64,000 bases of DNA, from NCBI GenBank assembly GCA_009699865.1, contig WLNJ01000001.1, positions 1 to 64,000 of the forward strand, written 5' to 3'. Shown here one piece after another: positions 29,942-37,461 of the stretch. Within the stretch, counting starts at the first letter, position 1; every line of letters begins with the position of its first letter. Made by a program: the position numbers and the translations under genes. The notes under the pieces are model-generated. The model saw only the letters and a program-made list of their open reading frames with translations, had not been told where the DNA came from and did not search any database. The stretch is from Actinomycetota bacterium (lineage in GTDB: Bacteria > Actinomycetota > Thermoleophilia > Solirubrobacterales > Solirubrobacteraceae).

Positions 29942-30333
29942 TGTTCCTCCGACACGGCAAGCCATCTCTCTAGCAACACGGCCGCAGCCCGGGAGTCCTC
30001 GCTTGAGTTGCCTCCAATTTCCTGCGCGGCCTTGGTGGTCAGCCGCTCATCAAAGACCTCAACTTCAACTGGCGACAGCAGCTTCCTTAGTTGAGCGGCA
30101 AAGTGCTGGACTCGATTGGTCTGCTCCGTCGTTCCACCATCCATACCGAGGGGTAGGCCAACGATGACCAGCGCCGCCTCGCGTTCCTGAACAACATCCT
30201 TGATTGCTTCCATCCCTGCTGGCGTATCCGGCTTGGCGATTGCCTCAAGCGGAGTTACGATCGTCCCGGACGGGTCGCTGCTCGCAACACCACACCGAGC
30301 CGATCCGTGATCGAGAGCGACCACACGGCTCAT
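29938..30333 (-). CDS. ruvX: Putative pre-16S rRNA nuclease / RuvX (YqgF)
   Basis: A 131-residue RNase H-fold YqgF protein, implicated in 16S rRNA 5' maturation. ALDHGSARCGVASSDPSGTI carries the first Asp, LVIVGLPLGMDG the middle strand, and VFDERLTTKAA the second acidic patch. It overlaps alaS upstream and mltG downstream by four bases each. The alaS-ruvX-mltG-aroE order is the familiar actinobacterial one. Confidence 0.95.
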   Translation of the reverse strand: MSRVVALDHGSARCGVASSDPSGTIVTPLEAIAKPDTPAGMEAIKDVVQEREAALVIVGLPLGMDGGTTEQTNRVQHFAAQLRKLLSPVEVEVFDERLTTKAAQEIGGNSSEDSRAAAVLLERWLAVSEEQ

Positions 30334-32954
30334 CCCGTAGCTGCCTCTACGACAGCGCGCGCAGCAAGCAATGCTTCAGGAGTTAGCTCTGGGTCTTTGC
30401 CTCCGGCACGAGCCATTGAGTCCTTGCCGCCGCCGCCGCCGCCAACAACGCTCGCGGACCTGGCGACAATCTCCCCGGCCTTGACACCCCGCGCAATAGC
30501 GCCTGGACCTACGGCTGCGATCAAGTCAACCTTGTCCGAAGCCCTCGAAGCGATGACAACGACGGAGTCCTCGCCCAACAGGCCGAGCACTCGGTCAGCC
30601 AGATCAGGCAGCGCCTTGCCTCCAACATCGGCAACCTCAACAAAGACACAGGACAGCCCGTTGAGATCCGTTGCCTGGGCCGAGACCCCAGCCGGATCTA
30701 CAGCAGCGCTAGATTCGGCAACCTTCTCAAGCTCACGGAGTCGCTCCAACCGTTTCCTCACTGACTCAGCGGCTGCGTCCGGGGTGGTCTTGAGCTGGTT
30801 GGCGATATCCGACAAATTCAGATCATGCTCACGCAGAAGCCCGATCGCAACTGGTCCTGTAACCGCCTCGACTCTGCGAACATTCGCCGCGCTTGAGCCC
30901 TCTGAGGTGATCTTGAAGCAGCCAATCTCCGCTGTAGACCGGACGTGTGTTCCACCGCAGAGCTCGCGTGAAAAGTTGCCGTCCCCGATCTCGACAAGGC
31001 GTACGACAGCACCGTACTTCTCCCCAAACAGAGCCATGGCGCCCTTTTCCTTGGCGGCATCAAGAGTGGTCTGAGACCAGGTCACATCTTGATTGGAGAG
31101 GATCTGTGCGTTGACCCGATCCTCAATCGCCCCGATGTCAGCCTGCGTGAGCCCCTCTCCGTGAGTGAAGTCAAAGCGCAACTTGTCCGGACCAACATAT
31201 GAGCCTGCCTGCCTCACATGGCTGCCAAGCCGCTCCCTCAAGGCAGCGTGGAGCAGGTGGGTGGCAGTGTGGTTGGCCTGGGTCGCAAACCGACTCCCAC
31301 TCTCGACGCGTGCAGTAACCGTACTCCCGACCTCCGGAGCCAACGTCAGTCCAGTGAGGAGAATTACTTGGTCATCCCCTAGCCGCACAACGGAGGTGAC
31401 CTCTCCAACCTCGCCGCCAGCAGTAACAACCTGCCCAACATCGCCAACCTGACCGCCGCCCGCTGCGTAGAAAGGGGACTCATTCAGCTTGAGCAAGAAT
31501 GCATCGTCGTCAACGGCCTCGGTCGCGGTCACGGTAGCCGCGATCTCAATATCGCTATAGCCGACAAACTCAGAGGGAGCGCCCGTCTTGGCTAGTTGCG
31601 CAGCGGCCAGATCTAGCGCAGATACCTCGCCGTTAGGGCTCGCCGTCGCAGAACCTCCACGCGCCCGCTCCCTTTGCTCGTCCATCAGCAGCTCAAAGCC
31701 AGCCTCATCCACGCCAAGCCCATGTTCGGCGACAAGCTCGAGCGTTAAATCGATCGGAAATCCGTGAGTGTCGTGCAACAGAAACGCATCAGCGGCAGAG
31801 ATTCCCTCTTGCCCAGAAGTGCGGGCTGCCGAGATCAGCTCGTCGAGGGACTCTGAACCGGCGACGAGGGTGCGGCCAAAGCCCTCTTCCTCAGCGGCAA
31901 CCCATGTTCTGATCACATCACGTTGCTCACTCAACTCTGAATAGTTCTCAGCCATGACCTTCTCCACAGCCTCCGCGTATGCCAGAAGAAAACCAGGCTC
32001 CATTCCGAGCTTGCGGCCGTGAAGAATTGCTCTGCGCATCAGCCGACGGAGAATGTATCCCCGCTCCTCGTTCGACGGTACGACGCCGTCGGCAATGAGA
32101 AAGCACATTGCCCGGGAATGATCAGCGAGGATGCGCAGCGAACGTTCACTCACCTCCGCTGTAGCCAGCTCCCGCCCGAGGGCCATCAGTGGGATGAACT
32201 GATCTGTGTCAAACACCGATCCGACACCTTGGAGAATCGCGGCCATCCGGTTCAGACCCATGCCGGTATCGATGTTCTTGGAGGGCAGAGGCGTCAGTTC
32301 ACCCTTCGCCGACTGCTCATACTCCATGAACACAAGGTTCCAAAACTCAAGGTGACGTTCGCCATCGTCACCTGGACGCTCGCTATCGGGGCCGAACTCC
32401 GGCCCCCGGTCAAAATAGAGCTCTGAACATGGCCCACACGGCCCCGTTGGTCCTGCCTGCCAGAAGTTGTCTTTGCGCCCGAGTTGGGTGATTCTCTCGG
32501 GGTCGACCCCGACGGCTACCCATGCGTCGATGGCCTCTTGGTCTGGACCCAAGCCCAGCTCTGGGTCACCCGCAAAGACTGTGATCCAGATCTGCTCGGG
32601 AGCGAACCCAAACCCCTCCGTTGCCACCTTCCAAGCATGCGCGATGGCACCCTCTTTGAAGTACTCCCCGATCGAGAAATTCCCGAGCATTTCGAAGAAG
32701 GTGAGGTGCCTAGCAGTGGACCCAACATTCTCGATATCAGTGGTCCTGAAGCACTTCTGGCACGACGTGAGAATCGAATTTGGGGGTGTCTGTTGCCCAA
32801 GGAAGTACGGCTTGAGGGGATGCATACCCGCTGTTGTGAGAAGCACGCTCGCGTCGTGTGTCGCGGGCACAAGTGGTGCGGAATCAACGCGAAGGTGGCC
32901 CTCCCGCTCAAAGTGGTCAATGAATGTGCTGCGGATCTCGTCAGTAGTAGTCAC
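30330..32954 (-). CDS. alaS: Alanine-tRNA ligase
   Basis: An 874-residue alanyl-tRNA synthetase with class II core (RSTFIDHFEREGHLRVDSAPLVP at the N-terminus, FFEMLGNFSIGEYFKEGAI), tRNA-recognition region, editing domain with NHTATHLLHAAL and the second zinc motif CGGTHV, and the C-terminal oligomerisation (DHHA1-type) domain ending GGGGGKDSMARAGGKDP. GTG 32954 starts it, 12 bases after the mnmA stop. Full length and complete. Confidence 0.97.
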   Translation of the reverse strand: MTTTDEIRSTFIDHFEREGHLRVDSAPLVPATHDASVLLTTAGMHPLKPYFLGQQTPPNSILTSCQKCFRTTDIENVGSTARHLTFFEMLGNFSIGEYFKEGAIAHAWKVATEGFGFAPEQIWITVFAGDPELGLGPDQEAIDAWVAVGVDPERITQLGRKDNFWQAGPTGPCGPCSELYFDRGPEFGPDSERPGDDGERHLEFWNLVFMEYEQSAKGELTPLPSKNIDTGMGLNRMAAILQGVGSVFDTDQFIPLMALGRELATAEVSERSLRILADHSRAMCFLIADGVVPSNEERGYILRRLMRRAILHGRKLGMEPGFLLAYAEAVEKVMAENYSELSEQRDVIRTWVAAEEEGFGRTLVAGSESLDELISAARTSGQEGISAADAFLLHDTHGFPIDLTLELVAEHGLGVDEAGFELLMDEQRERARGGSATASPNGEVSALDLAAAQLAKTGAPSEFVGYSDIEIAATVTATEAVDDDAFLLKLNESPFYAAGGGQVGDVGQVVTAGGEVGEVTSVVRLGDDQVILLTGLTLAPEVGSTVTARVESGSRFATQANHTATHLLHAALRERLGSHVRQAGSYVGPDKLRFDFTHGEGLTQADIGAIEDRVNAQILSNQDVTWSQTTLDAAKEKGAMALFGEKYGAVVRLVEIGDGNFSRELCGGTHVRSTAEIGCFKITSEGSSAANVRRVEAVTGPVAIGLLREHDLNLSDIANQLKTTPDAAAESVRKRLERLRELEKVAESSAAVDPAGVSAQATDLNGLSCVFVEVADVGGKALPDLADRVLGLLGEDSVVVIASRASDKVDLIAAVGPGAIARGVKAGEIVARSASVVGGGGGGKDSMARAGGKDPELTPEALLAARAVVEAATG

Positions 32955-32966
32955 GGGGCCTTCAGT

Positions 32967-34412
32967 CTAAGCCCCGGCACCCGAGATCGTTGCGCAGCCG
33001 ACAATTAGGTCCCCCTCAAGCAGACAGGCCATTTGCCCGGGAGCAACCGCCACGGCTGGCTGCGCGAACGTAAGTACTGCTGCGCCGTCATCGCCCAGCT
33101 CGAGCGACGCGTCCCCCGTTGCTCCGTGATGTCGCAATCTCGCGGATGTCACCCGGGTGGCATCAGCCCTCAAGTCAAGGTCGACAAGCTCAACACGCAG
33201 CGTGGAAATAGCGGCCCTCGGAGCAACGGTGACAGTGTTGCTCTTTGAGTCAGTTCGGAGGACATAGAGCGGCTCGCCTCCGCCTATCCCCAAACCCTTG
33301 CGCTGACCAACGGTGTGGTTGTGGATACCTCGATGCGTGCCCACTCGCCGACCCTCCTGGTCTACAACAGGGCCCTCATTGGTTTTGACCCCACCGTGAC
33401 GGGCGAGGAATGCCTCTCGGCCTACTCCCGCTAGGAAGCAGAGGTCTTGACTGTCGGCGGTCTCCGCTGCTTCCAGCCCAGCCTTTCGTGCGATGTCCCG
33501 CACCTCGGGTTTATGCATGCCGCCAAGGGGAAACTCCATGCGCGCTAGCACCTCACGGGGAACCCGGGCTAGGGCATACGCCTGATCCTTTGCCGGGTCT
33601 ACTCCCTCACGCAATAGCGGCTCAAGCCCGTCAGCTGCATCATCCGAGAATCGGGCGTAGTGCCCAGTCACAAGGGCTTCGGCGCCAATGCTGTCAGCCA
33701 GGTCCACCATTGGCTCAATTCGAACATTGCCATTGCACTGAACGCAAGGGTTAGGCGTCGCGCCGTTTCGATAGCCGTCGATCCACGGGTCAACAACGCC
33801 AGCACGGAACTCTTCCCGCAGATCGAGAGTCAGATGGGGCAGTCCGAGAGTGTGGGCCATATCGCGCGCGCGCCTCACGGCGATGTGAGAACAGCAGGAG
33901 GCCTCGGCATCGGACTCCTCATCCCGCCAGAGCTCGAGCGTTACCGCCGCAACATCCCGCGTCCCGTCCTCTGACGCCAACCAAGCGGCGACCGCACTGT
34001 CCACCCCGCCGCTCATCGCAACGAGCCTGCGGTCAGAACGCGCCAGCGGCTCTGCGTCTCGAGCAGCAGCGCCAAGAGCACGGTGGAAGGCATCCACCGC
34101 CAATTCACTGGCATGCACCTTCGATGCCGACAGTCCCCCAAGCTCCTCAGCTACCTCAACGAGTCCCACCTTGGCTGCCTCCAGTAGTGGCAGACCAGAA
34201 ACTCGGGCCACGATGGCTGAGCCGCAAGCGGTCAGAGCACCACAGCCTTCAGCATCAAAGCCGGCCGCGACAGTTCCGGACGAGACCTCAACACGGAACT
34301 GGATTAGATCGCCACACGCGACACCGCCTGCGGAGCCCTGATGAGTGACTTCAGGGATTGCGCCCAAACCCTCTGGGCTCAGAAGGTGGTGCTCAAAGGC
34401 AAGACCATCCAC
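32967..34412 (-). CDS. mnmA: IscU/NifU-like domain fused to tRNA-2-thiouridylase MnmA
   Basis: A 481-residue fusion. Residues 1-118 resemble the IscU scaffold: VACGDLIQFRVEV (C33, D35), AEGCGALTACGSAI (C57, C63) and KVHASELAVDAF (98-109). In IscU the last motif has Cys after the His; here it is Ala101, although H100 is kept. Residues 125-481 are MnmA, which puts sulfur on U34 of Lys, Glu and Gln tRNAs: P-loop MSGGVDSAVAA (133-143), catalytic C223 in NPCVQCNG and C325 in DSQDLCF. GTG 34412 starts the IscU-like part in frame, leaving no sign of frameshift. The gene lies between aspS and alaS. The MnmA call is secure; the scaffold part's activity is not. Confidence 0.93.
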   Translation of the reverse strand: MDGLAFEHHLLSPEGLGAIPEVTHQGSAGGVACGDLIQFRVEVSSGTVAAGFDAEGCGALTACGSAIVARVSGLPLLEAAKVGLVEVAEELGGLSASKVHASELAVDAFHRALGAAARDAEPLARSDRRLVAMSGGVDSAVAAWLASEDGTRDVAAVTLELWRDEESDAEASCCSHIAVRRARDMAHTLGLPHLTLDLREEFRAGVVDPWIDGYRNGATPNPCVQCNGNVRIEPMVDLADSIGAEALVTGHYARFSDDAADGLEPLLREGVDPAKDQAYALARVPREVLARMEFPLGGMHKPEVRDIARKAGLEAAETADSQDLCFLAGVGREAFLARHGGVKTNEGPVVDQEGRRVGTHRGIHNHTVGQRKGLGIGGGEPLYVLRTDSKSNTVTVAPRAAISTLRVELVDLDLRADATRVTSARLRHHGATGDASLELGDDGAAVLTFAQPAVAVAPGQMACLLEGDLIVGCATISGAGA

Positions 34413-34417
34413 GCTGC

Positions 34418-36217
34418 TCAGTCCTCAGGTGTTCGCTGGACCCGATCAACCGGCAGACGCTGAAGACCAATCTCCTTGAGCTGCGCGGGATCAACCTCGC
34501 CTGGGGCTCCAGTAAGTGGATCTTGGGACGAAGCACTCTTAGGGAAAGCAATGACATCACGGATGGAATCATGGCCAGCGCAGAGAGCGACAAGTCGGTC
34601 GACTCCAAGCGCGATGCCGCCATGTGGTGGAGCACCTTGGCGCAAGGCCCTCAGCAGGAAGCCGAAGCGCTCCTCTGACTCAGCCGCAGTCATTCCAATG
34701 ATCTCTAGAACCTTGGCCTGTGTCTCCGGGTCGTGGATTCGGATCGATCCGCCGCCAATCTCAACGCCATCCAAAATGATGTCGTAGGCGCGTGACTTCA
34801 AGCTAGCTGGATCCCCAAGGTCCCCAGATGGCGCAGTAAACGGATGATGAAGCGCGGTCCAACCACCAGAGTTGGAGTCAGGCTCAAACATTGGGAAGTC
34901 AGTGACCCACAGCGCGTGATGGAGTCCATCCGGAACCAATCCCCGACGCTGGCCTAGGTCGATGCGAACCGCGCTCAGCGCAGCCCCCGCAGTGGCCTGG
35001 GAATCAGCCACGAGCAACATCAGGTCGCCCTCTGACGCGCTTAGAGCAGCAATTACACCCGCGCGCTCATCATCACTAAGGAACTTACCCACCGGGGAGC
35101 GCCAACCCCCATCTGCCTCGACGAATGCCCAAACGAGTCCTCCAGCACCGTGCCGCTTCGCAAGGTCGGTCAGGGCGTCTAGCTCGGACCGGGGCACTTC
35201 AACATTCCCGGCGTTCAGACCCCAGACAACCCCGCCAGAGTCCAACGCGCCCCTGAAGACCTTGAACTCGGTGGCCCCGAGCGCCTGGCCTACATCAGCA
35301 AGCTCCAGCCCAAAGCGGGTATCCGGACGGTCGTTACCGAACCTGGACATCGACTCGGCGTGTGTCATTCTCGCCCACGGGGCCGGGTTAACCTGAAGCC
35401 CAGCAACCTCAAAGACATGAGTAAGGACGCGTTCGGTGATTTCAAGAACGTCGTCCTCCTCAACGAATGACATCTCGAGGTCCATCTGCGTGAACTCGGG
35501 TTGCCTGTCAGCCCGAAGATCCTCATCACGGAAGCAGCGAGCGATTTGGTAATACCGTTCGATACCGCCGACCATCAAAAGTTGTTTGAAGAGCTGCGGT
35601 GACTGTGGAAGAGCGAAGAACTCTCCCGGGGAGGTCCTAGCCGGGACAAGAAAGTCGCGGGCACCCTCAGGTGTCGAGCGGGTCAGCACTGGTGTTTCGA
35701 CATCAGTGAACCCGGCCGTGTCAAGCACATGACGGATAGCCCTTGTCACCTCATGACGCAGACGCAGTGCGCGGGAGAGAGCTGGCCGCCGGATGTCCAC
35801 GGCACGGTTCTTCAACCGGATTAGCTCGTCTACATGCCCATCCTCATCAACTGGGAATGGTGGCGTCTCCGCCGACGAGATCAACACAAGTTTTGTTACC
35901 GAAAGCTCAACAGCACCGGTAGGAGCGTCAGTATTAACTTGCCCCTCCCCTCGCCTGACAAGCACTCCAGTGGCGGTAACAACATCTTCCGAGCGCAGGG
36001 CGTGAGCGACGCCGTGCGCCTCCGCGGCCTCCTCTGGATGAAAGACAAGTTGGACCAGCCCGCTTCTATCGCGAAGATCAACAAAGACAAGCCCTCCGTG
36101 GTCACGGCGCCGATGAACCCAGCCAGAGACTGTGACTGGGACAGGGGAATCCACGTCGGATTCCCGCAGGTCGCCAGCCCAGCGGGTGCGATAAGAGTTG
36201 GGCGTAAGCTCAGTCAC
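34418..36217 (-). CDS. aspS: Aspartate-tRNA ligase (AspS)
   Basis: A 599-residue bacterial-type aspartyl-tRNA synthetase. The N-terminal OB-fold anticodon domain includes VSGWVHRRRDHGGLVFVDLRD; class II motif 2 is CFRDEDLRADRQPEFTQ, and motif 3 is GIALGVDRLVALCAGHDSIRDVIAFPK. The GAD insertion between motifs is present. Whether it is discriminating or also charges tRNA-Asn is not readable here; no gatCAB genes are in view. The ATG overlaps the hisS stop by four bases. Confidence 0.97.
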   Translation of the reverse strand: MTELTPNSYRTRWAGDLRESDVDSPVPVTVSGWVHRRRDHGGLVFVDLRDRSGLVQLVFHPEEAAEAHGVAHALRSEDVVTATGVLVRRGEGQVNTDAPTGAVELSVTKLVLISSAETPPFPVDEDGHVDELIRLKNRAVDIRRPALSRALRLRHEVTRAIRHVLDTAGFTDVETPVLTRSTPEGARDFLVPARTSPGEFFALPQSPQLFKQLLMVGGIERYYQIARCFRDEDLRADRQPEFTQMDLEMSFVEEDDVLEITERVLTHVFEVAGLQVNPAPWARMTHAESMSRFGNDRPDTRFGLELADVGQALGATEFKVFRGALDSGGVVWGLNAGNVEVPRSELDALTDLAKRHGAGGLVWAFVEADGGWRSPVGKFLSDDERAGVIAALSASEGDLMLLVADSQATAGAALSAVRIDLGQRRGLVPDGLHHALWVTDFPMFEPDSNSGGWTALHHPFTAPSGDLGDPASLKSRAYDIILDGVEIGGGSIRIHDPETQAKVLEIIGMTAAESEERFGFLLRALRQGAPPHGGIALGVDRLVALCAGHDSIRDVIAFPKSASSQDPLTGAPGEVDPAQLKEIGLQRLPVDRVQRTPED

Positions 36218-37461
36218 TGGACCATCATCCCGCGAAGCGCGTCAAGAAGCGTCGCGACGGACTCAGCTGCGATCTGCTCCCCGGTATCCATGTTCTTCAG
36301 CTGGTCGCCAGAAGAGTCCAGCAGGGCAACTCCGCGAGCACCGATCTTGTTCGCATGCTTGAGGGAGGCCTTCACGGATCGTCCAGTCACCTCGAGCCGG
36401 GCTTCTATTCCTTGGGAGCGGGCAAGGTTGGCCAATACGAATGCGTCATTAAGCCTGTCTGCCTCAAGGGCAACTACAAGCAGATCGCAGCTAGGCTCAG
36501 GTGCGTCCCGTTGATCACGCGCGAGAAGGATTCTCTCCACCCCGGCCGCCCAGCCAATCCCAGGAGTGGCCGGGCCGCCGAGAAGCTCCATCAGACCGTC
36601 ATAACGGCCACCCCCACCAACTCCGCTCTGTGCTCCTAGCCGATCGGAGGTGAACTCAAACACGGTTCGACCGTAGTAGTCGAGGCCCCTCACCAAGCGC
36701 GGGTCAACCTCATAGGCAACACCGGCGGCATCAAGAAGCTCACGCACAACTTGGAAGTGTTCCGCATCCACCGAATCAAGCGAGTTAAGCAACAGAGGCG
36801 CCGTTGCCATCACCTCCTGAGTGGAAGGATCAGCGCTGTCGAAGGCCCTTAGCGGGTTGACATCTATCCGGCTCCTGACATCCTCTGACAGCTTGTCCTG
36901 ATTGGCCCTCAAGTGCGCTTGTAGGAGCTCGCGGTAGGTCAGCCTGGTCTCAGTTGAGCCAAGCGAACCGAGCCTCAGCCTAAGGTCGCCCACGGAGAGC
37001 TCCTCAAGTACCTCGGCCAAGAGAAGCACCATCTCGGCGTCCAGCTCCGGACGGTCGCTCCCTAGCGCCTCGGCACCAATCTGGTGGAACTGCCTAAACC
37101 GGCCGGCCTGTGGTGCCTCGTGTCTAAAGAATGGTCCGGAGTACCAGACGCGGATGGGTTGAGGAAGCTTGTGCATCCCGTTCTGAATGTAAGAACGGCA
37201 GATAGCAGCAGTCCCCTCGGGTCTGAGGGTTACCGAGCGCCCCCCACCGTCATCGAAGGAGTACATCTCCTTGGCCACAATGTCCGTCGATTCGCCAACT
37301 CCACGCGCAAAGAGCTCTGTTGACTCAAAGATCGGAGTCTGAATGCGGGCGTAGCCGGCCCTGCCCAAAACACGGGCCGCAACTGCCTCAACCTCTGAGT
37401 AGTCCGCCTCCTTGTCAGGGAGCACATCGAATGTGCCTTTGGGTGCCTGCAGCTCGCTCAT
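36214..37461 (-). CDS. hisS: Histidine-tRNA ligase
   Basis: A 415-residue class II HisRS. It shows APKGTFDVLPDKE at the start, TLRPEGTAAICRSYIQNG, motif 2 YSGPFFRHEAPQAGRFRQFHQIGAE, the histidine-specific RGLDYYGRTVFEF and GGGGRYDGL, and the C-terminal anticodon-binding domain. Start is ATG 37461 with a four-base overlap with the MBL gene upstream. It pairs with aspS in a synthetase operon, as in many Gram-positive genomes. Confidence 0.97.
   Translation of the reverse strand: MSELQAPKGTFDVLPDKEADYSEVEAVAARVLGRAGYARIQTPIFESTELFARGVGESTDIVAKEMYSFDDGGGRSVTLRPEGTAAICRSYIQNGMHKLPQPIRVWYSGPFFRHEAPQAGRFRQFHQIGAEALGSDRPELDAEMVLLLAEVLEELSVGDLRLRLGSLGSTETRLTYRELLQAHLRANQDKLSEDVRSRIDVNPLRAFDSADPSTQEVMATAPLLLNSLDSVDAEHFQVVRELLDAAGVAYEVDPRLVRGLDYYGRTVFEFTSDRLGAQSGVGGGGRYDGLMELLGGPATPGIGWAAGVERILLARDQRDAPEPSCDLLVVALEADRLNDAFVLANLARSQGIEARLEVTGRSVKASLKHANKIGARGVALLDSSGDQLKNMDTGEQIAAESVATLLDALRGMMVQ

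What the first reader, a model, noticed from the sequence alone, without database searches (positions are those of the whole stretch)
32967..34412. IscU-like scaffold domain fused to MnmA, with one cluster-ligand cysteine replaced
The N-terminal 118 residues keep two of the three IscU ligand cysteines (C33, C57), the Asp and the His, plus an extra C63, but the third Cys position is Ala101. Fusion to the tRNA thiolase could deliver sulfur or an Fe-S cluster directly to MnmA, replacing TusA-type relays. The Ala suggests a changed cluster (for example using C63) or sulfur-carrier role. No TusBCDE gene is in view.
Basis: partly seen in the sequence, partly recalled or inferred. Interest (0 to 1): 0.62.

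Follow-up and report, generated by a model that had tools for sequence, protein, structure and literature searches.

The report
Repurposed IscU domain fused to MnmA
An enzyme that puts sulfur on transfer RNA carries a built-in relative of the iron-sulfur scaffold IscU that lacks the cysteine through which human ISCU takes up sulfur; the arrangement is widespread in one group of bacteria and looks like a scaffold turned into a private helper of the tRNA enzyme.

Summary
The minus-strand ORF 34412-32967 (481 aa) is a NifU_N/IscU domain (1-118; Pfam 62 bits, cut-off 22) joined by a short linker to a complete MnmA. C33, D35, C57, C63, H100 and A101 are as stated. The fusion occurs throughout the sampled order, most of the class, and further families of the phylum. 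The missing cysteine is systematic: none of 90 fused domains keeps all five IscU ligands (C-D-C-H-C). In the window's order C33, D35, C57 and H100 are invariant (33/33) while position 101 is Ala, Gly or Val; other families keep the Cys but lose the His, or lose more. C63 is sporadic and no substitute ligand. The host has one detectable cysteine desulfurase (SufS, with its own SufU) and no detectable IscS, TusA or TusE. Best reading: an IscU recruited from an iscS-iscU-mnmA-alaS operon, released from Fe-S scaffolding, and kept as a metal-binding docking or persulfide-relay module for MnmA. Metal, partner and relay chemistry are inferred, not shown. No paper describing the fusion was found. New variant of a known kind.

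The parts
32967..34412 (-). Fused IscU-MnmA gene, 481 codons and stop
34059..34412 (-). IscU/NifU_N domain, residues 1-118
   Evidence: Pfam NifU_N 9-114, 62.3 bits; PDB IscU matches
34314..34316 (-). C33, first ligand Cys; equivalent of the sulfur-acceptor Cys of SufU (inferred from alignment)
   Evidence: invariant in 33/33 order members; PMC10216065
34308..34310 (-). D35, ligand Asp
   Evidence: invariant in 33/33 order members
34242..34244 (-). C57, second ligand Cys
   Evidence: invariant in 33/33 order members
34224..34226 (-). C63, extra Cys, not conserved
   Evidence: 6/33 order members Cys, 26 Ala, 1 Ser
34113..34115 (-). H100, ligand His
   Evidence: invariant in 33/33 order members
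34110..34112 (-). A101, in place of the third ligand Cys
   Evidence: Ala, Gly or Val throughout the order
34032..34058 (-). Linker, about residues 119-127
   Evidence: sequence; distance from domain end to the PP-loop most often 19 residues in the fused set
32970..34031 (-). MnmA part, residues 128-481, PP-loop SGGVDS at 134-139
   Evidence: NF001138 and TIGR00420 above cut-off
33891..33896 (-). C173-C174, the CC of C-type MnmA
   Evidence: sequence; motif definition PMC11784392
33735..33746 (-). CxxC of MnmA (C223, C226)
   Evidence: NPCxxC in 124/124 MnmA sequences compared
33438..33440 (-). C325, third Cys of the CxxC-C centre
   Evidence: sequence
34418..36217 (-). aspS, upstream neighbour
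   Evidence: ORF; same neighbour in relatives; name by my reading of the sequence
36214..37461 (-). hisS, upstream
   Evidence: ORF; conserved neighbour; name by my reading of the sequence
30330..32954 (-). alaS, downstream neighbour
   Evidence: ORF; conserved neighbour; name by my reading of the sequence

Best explanation
An IscU that once stood in an iscS-iscU-mnmA-alaS operon was joined to MnmA and stopped being a general Fe-S scaffold; it now serves MnmA alone. In the window's lineage it keeps a four-residue site (C33, D35, C57, H100), which I infer binds Zn2+ or Fe2+. I infer that it docks on the only cysteine desulfurase found in the cell, SufS, takes persulfide sulfur on C33 (the position used by SufU, not the lost third Cys used by ISCU) and hands it to the CxxC-C centre of MnmA for 2-thiolation of tRNA U34. 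Shown: the fusion, its breadth, the systematic ligand loss, invariance of the four-residue site in the order, purifying selection, the operon arrangements in relatives, and the absence of detectable IscS, TusA and TusE in the host. Inferred: metal binding, SufS as partner, C33 as acceptor, transfer to MnmA.
For: 0 of 90 fused domains have the full CDCHC set, 62 of 89 keep four of five. In the order only 9 of 114 positions are invariant at 52% mean identity, and C33, D35, C57 and H100 are four of them. In f9 C33 is invariant (15/15) although the other ligands are gone. dN/dS about 0.07 in the domain and 0.06 in MnmA. One strong desulfurase match in the host and in complete order genomes G002, G005, G023; it is SufS in the host, with a His 19 residues before the catalytic Cys (sequence), the spacing of His354 and Cys373 in the M. 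tuberculosis enzyme that works with SufU (PMC10216065). Human ISCU2 takes sulfur on the Cys that is lost here and binds Fe2+ with the four residues kept here (PMC11021402). TusA and TusE absent.
Against: No biochemical data. f7 keeps only a ligand-less stub and f14 members can lack C33, so the chemistry is dispensable in some lineages. The cell's own SufU could feed MnmA, or SufS could do so directly, as B. subtilis YrvO does (PMC10219651). C33 is dispensable for persulfidation in human ISCU2. HMM scores place the domain nearer to IscU than to SufU.
Confidence: 0.45

Rival explanations
1. Docking or structural module: the IscU fold holds the desulfurase (or stabilises MnmA), and sulfur passes straight from desulfurase to MnmA; the ligand site is eroding at different speeds.
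For: f7 retains a stub of about 75 residues without any ligand, f9 keeps only C33 of the ligands, f32 has an N-terminal extension without ligands. YrvO feeds MnmA directly in B. subtilis (PMC10219651).
Against: Four ligands are invariant in 33/33 order members at 52% mean identity, which docking alone would not need.
Confidence: 0.28
2. Iron or Fe-S supply: the domain binds Fe2+ or a cluster and loads the [4Fe-4S] centre of its own C-type MnmA.
For: The MnmA half has the CC, CxxC and C motifs of the Fe-S type, and T. thermophilus MnmA of that type has a [4Fe-4S] cluster (PMC8584467). C, D, C and H are the residues with which free ISCU2 binds Fe2+ (PMC11021402).
Against: No fused domain has the five ligands; unfused C-type MnmAs do without the domain; order genomes have SufU and SufB/D.
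Confidence: 0.17
3. Vestige: a remnant of the old operon's IscU, fused by chance and without function.
For: Ligand loss, and reduction to a stub in f7.
Against: Retained across the order and most of the class, dN/dS about 0.07, invariant CDCH site.
Confidence: 0.05

Closest known systems
IscU / NifU N-terminal scaffold (PF01592, TIGR01999, TIGR03419)
   Same: Fold family by HMM; first Cys, Asp, second Cys and His kept; gene neighbourhood in relatives with a desulfurase
   Different: Third ligand Cys (persulfide acceptor in human ISCU2) is Ala; LSASK in place of the LPPxK segment of the complete IscUs; fused to MnmA
SufU zinc sulfurtransferase (TIGR01994)
   Same: A four-residue site in a NifU_N fold; acceptor Cys of SufU aligns with C33; host has a SufU-type SufS with the His
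   Different: SufU keeps the last Cys and has Lys for His (CDCKC); the fused domain keeps His and lacks the Cys; SufU model score far below cut-off
C-type (CxxC-C) MnmA, e.g. Thermus thermophilus (PMC8584467)
   Same: MnmA half at equivalog level, with the CC, CxxC and C motifs
   Different: Carries an extra N-terminal IscU-type domain
Apicomplexan MnmA with an N-terminal SufE-like domain (PMC10219651)
   Same: A presumed sulfur-acceptor domain attached to the N-terminus of MnmA, in a compartment with SufS and no Tus proteins
   Different: Other fold (SufE-like), eukaryotic organelle, independent origin
E. coli IscS-TusABCDE-MnmA and B. subtilis YrvO-MnmA
   Same: Sulfur supply to MnmA
   Different: Separate relay proteins, or a dedicated desulfurase; no fused IscU-like domain

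Membership tests
NifU_N domain family (PF01592) | Score over the curated cut-off | tested here: met
   62.3 bits against 22
IscU Fe-S scaffold | Three ligand Cys plus Asp and His | tested here: not met
   A101 in place of the third Cys; 0 of 90 fused domains have the full set
IscU Fe-S scaffold | NCBIfam IscU or NifU equivalog cut-off | tested here: not met
   40 bits against 192 (IscU) and 54 against 188 (NifU_clost)
IscU Fe-S scaffold | Assembles and transfers an Fe-S cluster | not testable with these tools
   needs protein chemistry
SufU sulfurtransferase | SufU model cut-off; Lys before a third Cys | tested here: not met
   19.5 bits against 92.5; His-Ala instead of Lys-Cys
SufU sulfurtransferase | Accepts persulfide from SufS on the first Cys | not testable with these tools
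   C33 is present and invariant in the order; chemistry untested
MnmA, tRNA 2-thiouridine(34) synthase | Equivalog cut-offs and PP-loop SGGxDS | tested here: met
   326 bits against 284 and 274 against 237; SGGVDS at 134-139
C-type (Fe-S) MnmA | CC, CxxC and C motifs | tested here: met
   C173-C174, C223xxC226, C325; motif as in PMC11784392
C-type (Fe-S) MnmA | Bound [4Fe-4S] needed for activity | not testable with these tools
   needs protein chemistry

The most novel reading that the evidence does not exclude
A class-wide, so far undescribed tRNA-thiolation route in which an IscU fold changed trade, from Fe-S scaffold (persulfide on the third Cys) to a built-in metal-gated sulfur relay of MnmA (persulfide on the first Cys, SufU-like but reached independently), the loss of scaffold ligands being permitted by a second scaffold in the cell.
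Probability: 0.3. Interest if true: 0.7.

Novelty: new variant of a known kind. Interest (0 to 1): 0.55.

Why it matters
How MnmA gets its sulfur outside E. coli and B. subtilis, and what an Fe-S cluster does in MnmA, are open or disputed (PMC11784392). Here the presumed helper is tied to the enzyme, and different lineages have lost different ligands, giving ready-made variants (CDCHA, CDCHG, CDCxC, C33 only, none) to test which residues sulfur delivery needs as against scaffolding.

Tried and rejected
C63 as a substitute ligand: rejected, sporadic. One-off mutation or sequencing error: rejected, same in L001 and throughout the order. Derivation from SufU: rejected by HMM scores and by the desulfurase-iscU-mnmA neighbourhoods. 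Loss of the Cys as a consequence of fusion: not upheld, as four unfused f21 IscUs also lack it. Fisher test of second scaffold against incomplete site (p about 2e-5, hand count over 34 genomes): not claimed, because independent pairs on the tree do not reach significance. Paper searches for IscU-MnmA or NifU-TrmU fusions found no description of one; the library lacks many subscription papers, and domain-architecture databases were not available, so the architecture may already be listed there.

Full report
WHAT IS THERE. The reported frame is a minus-strand gene of 481 codons (34412-32967), starting 5 nt after aspS and ending 12 nt before alaS in the run hisS-aspS-fusion-alaS. Residues 9-114 match NifU_N well above the curated cut-off, and residues 130-476 match MnmA at equivalog level. 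The PDB holds relatives of each half but no chain matching both.

NOT A ONE-OFF. An independent assembly of a related species, titled a Solirubrobacterales MAG, has the same frame at 88% identity. Most genomes sampled in the order have two NifU_N matches, typically one short frame and one frame of roughly 470-600 aa. With the whole protein as query, 32 of 33 order genomes show at least part of the IscU region in the same frame as MnmA, and the 33rd match begins at a contig end. Other families of the class also have it (f5, f8, f9, f10), as do f21, f14, f53 and f71 elsewhere in the phylum. The two f6 loci read have separate genes; the five f7 loci read have only a stub; two f8 loci have none.

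THE MISSING CYSTEINE IS A RULE. I extracted 130 IscU-type domains. Of 90 fused ones none has Cys-Asp-Cys-His-Cys (one is cut by a contig end). The window's order and f5 read CDCH followed by A, G or V; f21 reads CDCHA or CDCHG; most f8 members, f10, f53 and f71 keep the last Cys but have lost the His; other f8 members have lost more; f9 keeps only C33, with one stray His; f14 is degenerate. Separate SufU proteins of the order read CDCKC in 28 of 28. Separate IscU proteins in f8, f9, f14, f53 and f71 read CDCHC. Unfused iscU genes beside mnmA read CDCHC in f6, f27 and f49 (8 sequences) but CDCHA in f21 (4 sequences). On a maximum-likelihood tree of the MnmA halves, position 101 needs at least 5 changes, the His at least 7, and complete versus incomplete at least 3; fused, adjacent and absent together need 12. 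Fused lineages lie in at least two places on the tree with unfused ones between them, though several forks are weak.

THE REST OF THE SITE IS USED. Among 33 order members with 52% mean identity, 9 of 114 positions are invariant, and four of these are C33, D35, C57 and H100. Between the window gene and L001, dN/dS is about 0.07 in the IscU part and 0.06 in MnmA. In f9 C33 is invariant in 15 of 15 although the other ligands are gone.

WHERE IT CAME FROM. In f21, f6, f27 and f10 a gene matching a cysteine desulfurase lies upstream, and in f21, f6 and f10 alaS mostly lies downstream. The ancestral order was therefore probably iscS-iscU-mnmA-alaS. In the window's order no desulfurase gene was seen at the locus. 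The host and three single-contig order genomes (G002, G005, G023) have one strong Aminotran_5 match each; in the host it is SufS. The host's next match reads as another aminotransferase, not a desulfurase (my reading of the sequence). TusA and TusE were not found in the host or in G002, G005 and G023.

SECOND SCAFFOLD. In 33 genomes placed on the tree, 7 of 8 with a complete mnmA-linked IscU have no other NifU_N gene, and 23 of 25 with an incomplete one have another. This suggests that the mnmA-linked copy lost ligands once it was no longer needed as scaffold. Counted by independent changes the evidence is thin (one informative supported pair), so it stays a suggestion.

MECHANISM. In human ISCU2 the third Cys (Cys138) is the persulfide acceptor, while Cys69, Asp71, Cys95 and His137 bind Fe2+ in the free protein (PMC11021402). 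The window domain has kept exactly the latter four and lost the former. In SufU the first conserved Cys takes sulfur from SufS after a SufS His displaces it from zinc (PMC10216065). The host SufS has a His at the same distance, 19 residues, before its catalytic Cys (sequence). The most economical reading is a SufU-like use of the site, feeding MnmA; docking alone is the main rival, and iron or Fe-S supply to the cluster-type MnmA a weaker one. An apicomplexan MnmA with a SufE-like N-terminal domain is a conceptual precedent (PMC10219651).

LIMITS. No structure and no chemistry. The host genome is 92% complete. TusB/C/D were not searched. The fusion was not sought outside the phylum. One genome per species was sampled.

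Noticed in passing
L081, L082, L083, L084, L085 (family f7), N-terminus of the mnmA frame: MnmA carries a stub of about 75 residues that aligns with the beta-sheet and last helix of the IscU domain but lacks every ligand segment; kept in all five loci read.
   Followed up: partly
L102, L120, L121, L122 (family f21): Unfused iscU genes between a desulfurase-like gene and mnmA already lack the third Cys (CDCHA), while close relatives in the same family are fused.
   Followed up: partly
L157 (family f32), mnmA frame of 523 aa: N-terminal extension of about 165 aa with no recognisable IscU ligands ahead of MnmA; possibly an extreme form of the same domain.
   Followed up: no
L109, L110 (family f14; genomes G439, G332): The degenerate fused domain is the only NifU_N match found in the genome, an exception to the second-scaffold pattern; the assemblies are fragmented and have one SufBD-like match.
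   Followed up: no
L114 94-3043 (host genome G000 contig C33): Host suf locus: a putative regulator (Rrf2-type by my reading), a SufC-like ATPase, SufS and SufU in a row; two SufBD matches lie further along the same contig.
   Followed up: partly
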